Assembly (NCBI GenBank): GCA_029959195.1
Contig: CP114127.1
Location: forward strand, 1,612,001-1,676,000
Direction: 5' to 3'
Source: Dictyophora rubrovolvata
Taxonomy: Eukaryota; Basidiomycota; Agaricomycetes; Phallales; Phallaceae
Length of the DNA: 64,000 nucleotides
Under the pieces are notes generated by a model that saw only the letters and a list, made by a program, of their open reading frames with translations, ran no database searches and was not told the DNA's origin. Shown here piece by piece: positions 54,730 to 56,766 of the stretch (position 1 is the stretch's first letter; each line of letters starts with the position of its first letter). The translations under genes were made by a program, and so were the position numbers.

Positions 54730-56766
54730 AATGGCTTCATCAGGATCCCTTATCCAACAATTCGGATTATTCGAAAATGAGGTCAATGATATTTATATCT
54801 CCAACCATTTTATAGGTAGTGTAATTGTTTCTTATTTATTCTGCTGAACAATGTAACATTGTTTACTGTAGTTGGATTATTTGCGGCATTGATATATGAT
54901 ACCGTTTTGACTTTTCCCGAACAGGTATAATTTAACCATACTCCTATGATTACCTGTGTTGACATTTTACATAAGATCGAGTTCATCTGGAGGTCGTACC
55001 TATCTCCAATCTGCTTGTACATGCGCACTTTTGATTACTTACCTGAGTAAAAATGTTTAGAAAACCGTTCACTTTCCCAAAAGGCCTGTACCTATTTTCG
55101 CGATACTACGGATTATTGAGTTTAGGGTAAAAAAAATTTTATGTAAAGATATATGAACGTACTGACCCGATTCTGTGATAGAGTCATAACATATAGTAAC
55201 TTCTTACCACTGACCTGACCTGTGAGAGTGCTTATGATTTAAAACAGTGTCGATAGTTCCAAACAGGCCTTTAAGTGTAAGTCGATCCTATAGACACTAA
55301 ACCCTGTCTCATCCAAAGCCTGTCTTCCCTCGTTCAGAGGTGAGTCTATGAAATTTTTATACTGTTAGAGATTCTACATGTATGCTCCAGCTGTCGTATC
55401 TTCATAGCATGGTACACTAGGTAATCAAGTTTGAGAGGGAAAAAAATGCTCATAATTTATTGATGGATGTTGTATCATAATAACGCAGTTCAGCCTTGCA
55501 AATAGCTGAAATAGTCATCAATCTCATACTTATTTTGCGAATTTATGCACCGTACGAAGGGAATAAAAAGAGTGAGTAGGTTTTTCAAAGGTTTCTCACT
55601 TATTTGATATGTGATGCTGACCCCCGATCAGTAATATCCCCCATATTCTCGCTTTATCTAAGTAAGTTGACAATTCGTAGTTGGAACTGAACATCCCTGA
55701 CCATATTAATTACATCACATAACAATTATTCATCAGTCGAGATAGGTGTATGTTTTAGCTCCTTTGCTTTTGTTCTGCTCAAGACTCCAAATTCAATTAC
55801 CAGTGTACGTTTTACGGTGGCATCGAAGCCGGGAAAGATTTCACCAGAACCATGGCAGCTCTGCCATTTAAGCTCTCTCTCGCAAATTGTGAGCTTTATG
55901 TGAGGACATTTTCCTCACTCAAAATAACACTCGCGTCATGGTTGGTTGATTTCCTCGGAGTTTATAACGTGTATTTATTCTCCTTCTTCTGCGCAAGGGT
56001 ACCTACTCTTTTCCTGGCAGGTATGCATCACAAGTTAATTTTGGTGGGAAGATAGCAACTAAATTCATGTTTTGCCTTAGCATCCTTCTTTGGTTTAGTA
56101 GCGTATAAAGCCTATGAAAAGGCTATCACCATTGACAACCATGGGTCATCTACTAGGTCCCTTGGTCAACTTCCTAGAATCATGAAAGCAATTGCCCGGG
56201 ACGGAATTATCTATTATTTCGTGTAAGGCGTTAAGCGTTCCACTATGTTAGTATGCCATTTGCGTTATTGATGTTTTAAACAGATTTACGCGTAAGAGAA
56301 AAATGTTTCTTTGCTCTCATACTACTCGCTTAAGATCCGCAACTTTCGGATGCACACATTAGTTGTCACTATACTGAATGCTACTCTGGTTCTCCGGGAA
56401 GACCATAATTCCATTGCATCGCTGGGTCCGCCGTACGTTTGATGCCCTCGCTTCTCTTCTTTTGCTCTCTCACATGTCATATCTAGTATATATCTACTAG
56501 TCGAATCACTTTGTGTAAATGTTCAAATTCCTGGCGAATTCTGTACCTCGCCCAGTTGTTGTCCACTAATACTAACTTTATGATTTTAGGGTTGTCATTT
56601 CATTATCAGTTTATATAGGCTTAGCAAGAAACAGCAAATAGAAACCAAAAGCACGGGTGTCGATATCGTTTTTCAATCTCCAAGGAATGTCTTCATGACG
56701 CAGTCTGAGTCTGCAAGTACTATGACTAGTACTTTGGCGCTTGAGGGTTCAAACGAGATGAATTGA
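54730..56766 (+). CDS. DUF6533-type membrane protein, copy 2
   Basis: Eighteen exons sum to 981 nt, giving 326 residues: 54730-54815, 54872-54924, 54976-54992, 55061-55126, 55182-55195, 55248-55276, 55338-55339, 55391-55420, 55499-55571, 55632-55661, 55737-55747, 55804-55940, 55998-56020, 56081-56222, 56284-56291, 56363-56432, 56487-56499, 56590-56766. The protein reads LFAALIYDTVLTFPEQ, IEFIWR, KPFTFPKGLYLFSRYYGLLS, SCRIFIAWYT, VINLILILRIYAPYE, NCELYVRTFSSLKITLA, ARDGIIYYFV, TILNATLVLRED and GCHFIISLYRLSKKQQ, ending GSNEMN. Multi-pass membrane protein of unknown function. Exons of 14, 2, 11, 8 and 13 nt match in position and phase those of the other two copies. Skipping any of the 14, 2, 11, 8 or 13 nt exons would break the frame. 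No lesion seen. Confidence 0.8.

What the first reader, a model, noticed from the sequence alone, without database searches (positions are those of the whole stretch)
54730..56766. Conserved series of ultra-short exons (14, 2, 11, 8, 13 nt) in DUF6533-type genes
Three paralogues (32707-34653 minus, 54730-56766 plus, 62176 onward plus) make continuous protein only if five tiny exons are spliced in. Each has the same length and phase in all copies. Copy 2 sums to exactly 327 codons over 18 exons. Conservation of lengths across diverged copies argues against chance. A protein of ~326 residues cut into 18 exons is extreme even for basidiomycetes and may make splicing a control point.
Basis: seen in the sequence. 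Interest (0 to 1): 0.85.

Follow-up and report, generated by a model that had tools for sequence, protein, structure and literature searches.

The report
Two-nucleotide exon in fungal membrane-protein genes
A family of fungal genes for seven-helix membrane proteins is cut into about 18 pieces, some only 2, 8, 11 and 14 letters long, and these tiny pieces appear to be real parts of the message that ordinary gene-finding software can miss.

Summary
The three window genes are 18-exon DUF6533 (PF20151) genes with matching exon series, including exons of 14, 2, 11 and 8 nt. The same genome holds six more open copies with the same tiny exons, and four distant paralogues (24-34% identical) that keep the 2-, 11- and 8-nt exons. 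In those four the 2-nt exon reads TT (Phe codon) instead of AG (Ser codon): its length held while its letters changed. Three public proteins, uninterrupted frames on unnamed contigs and probably cDNA, each used alone, recover the 2-, 11- and 8-nt exons (P0002 the 14-nt one too), though not in every copy. Introns between copies are near saturation and dN/dS is 0.19-0.38 where computable. I read the tiny exons as constitutive, handled by short-intron splicing, the 2-nt exon's two introns being removed one after the other. None of the tiny lengths is a multiple of three and skipping any one brings a stop before the normal end, which argues against an isoform switch; regulated intron retention is untested. 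It is a known kind (1-nt exons are published in Arabidopsis and Fusarium), but a striking member.

The parts
54731..56766 (+). copy 2: DUF6533 gene, 18 exons, 334 codons
   Evidence: PF20151, 47.5 bits
54976..54992 (+). copy 2 exon 3, 17 nt (inside the Pfam domain)
55182..55195 (+). copy 2 exon 5, 14 nt
55338..55339 (+). copy 2 exon 7, 2 nt (AG; first two letters of the Ser89 codon, before conserved Cys90)
55737..55747 (+). copy 2 exon 11, 11 nt
56284..56291 (+). copy 2 exon 15, 8 nt
32707..34653 (-). copy 1: DUF6533 gene, 18 exons, 330 codons
34192..34205 (-). copy 1 exon 5, 14 nt
34053..34054 (-). copy 1 exon 7, 2 nt (AG); intron 6 has a GC donor
33656..33666 (-). copy 1 exon 11, 11 nt
33135..33142 (-). 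copy 1 exon 15, 8 nt
62176..64000 (+). copy 3: DUF6533 gene, exons 1-17 in the window; exon 18 lies beyond it
   Evidence: exon 9 is 62935-63017, 83 nt; the acceptor was mis-set by me
62623..62636 (+). copy 3 exon 5, 14 nt
62778..62779 (+). copy 3 exon 7, 2 nt (AG)
63186..63196 (+). copy 3 exon 11, 11 nt
63763..63770 (+). copy 3 exon 15, 8 nt

Best explanation
These are functional genes of a DUF6533 subfamily (seven-helix, receptor-like membrane proteins) whose coding sequence is split by 16-17 short introns (46-81 nt) into exons as small as 2 nt. The tiny exons are constitutive. Each short intron is recognised across itself (intron definition), so tiny exons are tolerated; at the 2-nt exon the acceptor of intron 6 and the donor of intron 7 are too close for both to be bound at once, so the two introns must be removed one after the other, like a recursive-splicing step that leaves two letters behind. 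The two letters begin the codon before a conserved Cys at the start of helix 3. Shown: conserved structure and frame, and uninterrupted public open frames. Inferred: that those frames are cDNA, that inclusion is constitutive, and the stepwise splicing.
For: Same exons 2-11, 13, 15 and 17 in nine of ten close copies (exon 12 is 131 nt in one, 137 in eight); the tenth has an in-frame stop and a roughly 2-kb insertion. 2/11/8-nt exons in 4 of 4 distant genes, TT in place of AG. Public P0002 (334 aa on a 1144-nt contig; matching gene about 1.95 kb) and P0001 (262 aa on 1590 nt), each as sole query, give the 2-nt exon in 6 and 7 of 10 genes. P0006 (334 aa on 1744 nt; matching coding region spans 1907 nt) gives it in 4 of 4 distant genes. 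A profile of the distant genes gives 14/29/2/30 in five close copies (L031 twice, L051, L052, L053), with splice tables from close copies. Introns near saturation; dN/dS 0.19-0.38 in 23 of 36 pairs, the rest saturated. Outgroup loci without introns 5-7 keep a like RY-to-Cys spacing: 22 in six, 23 in six of 12 models, against 22.
Against: No RNA from this species was available. What the contigs behind P0001, P0002 and P0006 are is not stated; they could be intronless genes. P0001's contig (1590 nt) is not shorter than the matching genomic stretch (1519 nt in copy 2), and its frame opens exactly at the exon 5/6 junction, which hints that its source molecule was not fully spliced upstream. Frame-keeping alternatives without the 2-nt exon exist on paper. 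With P0002 alone the aligner misses 6 of 36 tiny exons (in C9:563k, C7:106k and C11:772k). Some single introns are still alike between copies (intron 6: 0.85 in copy 4 and C9:563k, 0.81 in C11:1684k and C2), so the copies are not fully independent trials.
Confidence: 0.82

Rival explanations
1. Splicing switch: inclusion of the tiny exons, or removal of their introns, is regulated, so that the full protein is made only in certain stages while skipped or retained forms are destroyed or truncated.
For: Skipping any one of the 17-, 14-, 2-, 11-, 8- and 28-nt exons brings a stop before the normal end in 9 of 9 copies, which could work as an on/off gate. P0001's frame begins at the exon 5/6 junction on a 1590-nt contig, compatible with a partly spliced molecule. 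The donor after the 14-nt exon is weak (0.2). Precedent: Xlr2 microexon in Trichoderma (PMC11121469, start of abstract in the listing).
Against: Strong donors at introns 6 and 7; lengths never a multiple of 3; P0002 and P0006 are fully continuous. No condition-dependent data.
Confidence: 0.12
2. The 2-nt exon is a modelling artefact: exon 6 is joined to exon 8 by one longer intron with another donor or acceptor.
For: 2-12 frame-keeping single-intron joins per copy exist; a frequent one uses a GT or GC 10 nt inside exon 6 and drops four residues.
Against: No such join is common to all nine copies (the one 10 nt inside exon 6 is absent in copy 4 and C11:772k); P0001 and P0002 keep the residues, and P0006 keeps them for the distant genes; the exon recurs in 13 genes with two different sequences.
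Confidence: 0.04
3. Stwintron or recursive-splicing point: the two letters are removed with a nested intron.
For: Two adjacent introns separated by AG in the close copies resemble a ratchet point; stwintrons are known in fungi (listing).
Against: Leaving the two letters out breaks the frame in 9 of 9 copies; the residue is present in P0001, P0002 and P0006; the distant genes have TT there.
Confidence: 0.02

Closest known systems
1-nt exon of CYP621A in Fusarium (PMC12940212)
   Same: Fungal gene, ultra-short exon needed for the frame, conserved in many genes, in a conserved motif
   Different: 1 nt, with support from SRA reads; here 2 nt plus 8, 11 and 14 nt in one gene, in a family described as basidiomycete-specific, and the 2-nt letters differ between clades
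1-nt exon of APC11 in Arabidopsis (PMC4674806)
   Same: Constitutive ultra-short exon; intron definition with one-after-the-other splicing proposed there
   Different: Plant, tested with constructs; here only sequence evidence
Plant microexons of 1-15 nt (PMC8831610)
   Same: Conserved and often misannotated
   Different: Plants; here a fungal multigene family with several in one gene
Phanerochaete chrysosporium P450 microexons (PMC1184071)
   Same: Basidiomycete genes with exons of 2-10 codons and many 45-55 bp introns
   Different: Shortest exon reported there is 6 bp
SNB1 of Coprinopsis (PMC10949477)
   Same: DUF6533 protein with seven predicted transmembrane helices
   Different: Its exon structure was not examined here

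Membership tests
Ultra-short (1-15 nt) microexons | Internal exon of 15 nt or less between GT/GC-AG introns | tested here: met
Ultra-short (1-15 nt) microexons | Required for the reading frame | tested here: met
   skips bring stops before the normal end in 9 of 9; other frame-keeping joins exist on paper
Ultra-short (1-15 nt) microexons | Seen in transcripts | tested here: inconclusive
   public uninterrupted homologues suggest spliced RNA in relatives; no RNA from this species
DUF6533 (PF20151) | Match over Pfam's cut-off | tested here: met
   47.5, 50.7, 48.6 bits against 24.1
Stwintron | Whole nested unit removed, no exon letters left | tested here: not met
   frame and public proteins need the two letters
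Neural-type cassette microexon | Length often a multiple of 3 | tested here: not met
   2, 8, 11, 14 nt
Neural-type cassette microexon | Alternative, tissue-dependent inclusion | not testable with these tools
   no RNA data
G-protein-coupled receptors | Seven-helix GPCR fold | tested here: inconclusive
   seven long helices but mean pLDDT 51.6; best PDB matches are GPCRs, none at E 0.001 or better
G-protein-coupled receptors | Coupling to a G protein | not testable with these tools
   needs an assay

The most novel reading that the evidence does not exclude
A whole receptor-like fungal subfamily keeps a series of obligatory ultra-short exons (2, 8, 11, 14 nt) because their ordered splicing gates when the receptor is made, for instance by stage-dependent intron retention.
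Probability: 0.08. Interest if true: 0.85.

Novelty: new member of a known kind. Interest (0 to 1): 0.56.

Why it matters
It adds a fungal 2-nt exon to a short list (a 1-nt exon in Fusarium; exons of 2-5 bp in Arabidopsis, Drosophila and human as cited in PMC12940212), in a family where the length is kept while the letters differ (AG or TT) and where four sub-15-nt exons share one gene. With 13 natural copies and introns of about 55 nt it is a good test bed for how a spliceosome handles an acceptor and a donor two letters apart. It also predicts misannotation: two Sphaerobolus stellatus records look broken in these places (P0007 lacks the stretch with the 2-nt exon, P0009 looks garbled at the 11- and 8-nt exons).

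Tried and rejected
Spliced alignment with the first profile misparsed the most diverged copies (C7:106k as 15+57, C11:772k as 40+44); I then saw the 14/29/2/30 parse by eye, and a profile and splice tables trained on the seven clear copies returned it, so for those two copies the result leans on the model. The aligner invents tiny exons in poorly matching loci (a 1-nt exon in L015, a 9-nt one in L005, a misplaced 2-nt one in L054), so I count only strong full-length matches. My first idea that the 14-nt exon is younger than the 2-nt one is not safe: the intron on its left also occurs in outgroup loci (66-nt exon), so the distant genes may have lost it. Gain or loss of the introns could not be settled: a clade of close plus distant genes is not rejected (p 0.306) but not resolved. 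Scans of L064-L067 gave weak matches with other exon lengths. C11:766k was set aside as a broken gene. One weak protein match (DUF3149, under its cut-off) was ignored.

Full report
What is there. The window is bases 1612001-1676000 of contig C11 of an unnamed 28.2-Mb, 11-contig genome. DUF6533 is described as basidiomycete-specific (PMC10949477, section 8), so I take the organism for a basidiomycete. Genome-wide, PF20151 has 152 exon-level matches at E up to 1, a lower bound by the tool's own note. The three window genes match PF20151 at 47.5 (copy 2), 50.7 (copy 1) and 48.6 bits (copy 3) against a cut-off of 24.1.

Gene models. Copies 1, 2 and 3 have 18 exons each with lengths 85, 53, 17, 66, 14, 29, 2, 30, 83, 30, 11, 137, 23, 142 (154 in copy 3), 8, 67 (70 in copy 2), 28 and a variable last exon. 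Splice sites are GT-AG, with a GC donor at intron 6 of copy 1. In one search I set one acceptor of copy 3 wrongly; one search corrects it. Copy 2 is 334 codons plus stop.

How the models were tested. I wrote a spliced protein-to-DNA aligner that allows exons of any length. A public protein, P0001, was used first: against copy 2 it returned exons of 2, 11, 8 and 28 nt at the hand-set positions. Over ten genes, P0002 alone gave the 2-nt exon in 6 and P0001 alone in 7 (splice tables from seven copy-2 introns that do not touch tiny exons). With tables built from 63 introns of the nine open copies whose two neighbouring exons are each 23 nt or longer, P0002 alone found 30 of 36 tiny exons (14 nt: 7 of 9; 2 nt: 6 of 9; 11 nt: 8 of 9; 8 nt: 9 of 9); where an exon was found, forbidding its sites cost 7.5 to 59.4 half-bits. 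With profile and tables trained on seven copies, nine of ten close copies show the same exons 2-11, 13, 15 and 17; exon 12 is 137 nt in eight and 131 in C11:772k. The tenth, C11:766k, has an in-frame stop and a roughly 2-kb insertion.

Chance. With the segment between flanking exons shuffled 100 times and P0002 as query, the real score was reached in 0-9 of 100 where the tiny exon was found (2-nt exon: copy 1 0, copy 2 2, copy 3 0, copy 4 1, C2 copy 0). Where it was not found the test says nothing: for the 2-nt exon C11:1684k, C9:563k and C7:106k (100 of 100 each) and C11:772k (16 of 100); for the 14-nt exon C9:563k (100) and C7:106k (70); for the 11-nt exon C7:106k (5). Totals over all copies were 180, 319, 18 and 17 of 900 for the 14-, 2-, 11- and 8-nt exons. 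Mean intron identity between copies is 0.60-0.67 against 0.59-0.65 after shuffling one partner; copies 2 and 3 stand out at 0.71 against 0.62, and single introns are more alike in some pairs (intron 6 up to 0.85). So leftover intron similarity explains little of the kept lengths, but the copies are related and not independent trials.

Distant paralogues. Four genes on C1 and C4, 24-34% identical to the nine, have exons 70, 80, 29, 2, 30, 80, 30, 11, 125-128, 23, 76-97, 24, 8, 70-73 and 28 (the 70-nt exon of C4:854k appears only). Here 53+17 and 66+14 are undivided, but the 2-, 11- and 8-nt exons are at the same places. The 2-nt exon reads TT in all four and AG in all nine close copies. I set the first models by hand; public P0006 as sole query, with splice tables from the close copies, then gave the same 2-, 11- and 8-nt exons in 4 of 4. 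A profile of the four distant genes, with those same tables, found 14, 29, 2, 30 in five close copies and failed in C7:106k and C11:772k; copies 1 and 2 were not in that scan. The count of 13 genes is a lower bound: not every DUF6533 locus was fetched.

Public evidence. P0002 is a 334-aa uninterrupted frame on a 1144-nt contig, 72% identical to the C2:157.5k copy, whose gene spans about 1.95 kb. P0006 is a 334-aa frame on a 1744-nt contig; the C1:2785k coding region matched spans 1907 nt. P0001 is a 262-aa frame on 1590 nt, not shorter than the matching 1519 nt of copy 2, but uninterrupted where copy 2 has 12 introns. I infer spliced cDNA; the source runs are not given. In the tree P0002 pairs with C2:157.5k (100/99) and P0001 falls with copies 2 and 3 (98/95); if they come from other species, as their identities suggest, the duplications are older than the species split. 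Sphaerobolus stellatus records differ from these at the tiny exons: P0007 lacks the stretch holding the 2-nt exon, P0009 keeps it but looks garbled at the 11- and 8-nt exons. I did not see their genes.

Relatives without the introns. Twelve outgroup models with one exon of 125-128 nt where introns 5-7 would lie have 22 (six) or 23 (six) residues from the RY motif to the Cys, against 22 in the spliced genes. The pattern was read from models of score 105 or more; one further outgroup model (L047+:2500) did not match it. These models come from the same aligner, which penalises gaps.

Function and mechanism. dN/dS is 0.19-0.38 in the 23 of 36 pairs with finite dS (0.76-2.03); the other 13 are saturated. 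An AlphaFold model of P0002 (five-row alignment) has seven long helices but mean pLDDT 51.6; its best PDB matches are GPCRs, none at E 0.001 or better. Cys90 and Cys169 (copy 2 numbering) are invariant in eight rows; on the P0002 model they begin helix 3 (residue 90) and lie between helices 4 and 5 (residue 172). A GPCR-like disulphide is my inference. Skipping any tiny exon brings a stop before the normal end in 9 of 9 copies. Mean donor scores of introns 6 and 7 are 8.1 and 8.5 in a range of 0 to 9.1; their acceptors, 2.0 and 1.3, are middling in a range of -0.3 to 3.6 (tables trained on seven of these nine copies). I favour constitutive inclusion with stepwise removal of the two introns, as suggested for the Arabidopsis 1-nt exon (PMC4674806, passages).

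Literature. I searched held papers for microexon with basidiomycete (9 papers), DUF6533 (2 papers), microexon, fungi and 'nt exon' (25 of 80 listed), stwintron, 1- and 2-nt exon phrases (15 papers) and small-exon phrases with basidiomycete (25 of 33 listed). No title or abstract start in those listings names a 2-nt exon in a basidiomycete or in DUF6533 genes; I did not read most of these papers, and papers outside that library were not searched. PMC12940212 (abstract, introduction, discussion) reports the Fusarium 1-nt exon as the first in a fungal gene and cites 2-5 bp exons in Arabidopsis, Drosophila and human. PMC1184071 (passages) gives 6 bp as the shortest exon in Phanerochaete P450 genes. 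PMC8831610 was seen as passages, PMC11121469 as a listing abstract only.

Confidence of the best explanation went from 0.83 to 0.82 and that of the artefact rival from 0.03 to 0.04, because P0001's contig is not shorter than its genomic match and some single introns remain alike.

Noticed in passing
window 54731 onward; L031 and L051 (C11:1666k-1686k): Copies 2, 3, 4 and C11:1684k form a tandem array of four genes over about 20 kb that continues past the window's end; copy 1 lies about 20 kb upstream on the other strand.
   Followed up: yes
L055 (C11:763.5k-769.5k, minus strand): A broken tenth copy with an in-frame stop and a roughly 2-kb insertion in the region of the 2-nt exon; the inserted stretch contains a repeated GGGAGGGGATCCTAAG-like motif.
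   Followed up: partly
P0001 (public, 1590-nt contig): Its open frame begins exactly at the exon 5/6 junction, as if intron 5 were kept or the 14-nt exon missing in the source molecule.
   Followed up: no
P0007 and P0009 (Sphaerobolus stellatus SS14): Public gene models that look broken at the tiny exons; P0007 lacks the whole stretch with the 2-nt exon.
   Followed up: partly
L049, L050 (C1:2785k, C4:850k): The distant paralogues carry a further 24-nt exon just before the 8-nt exon.
   Followed up: partly
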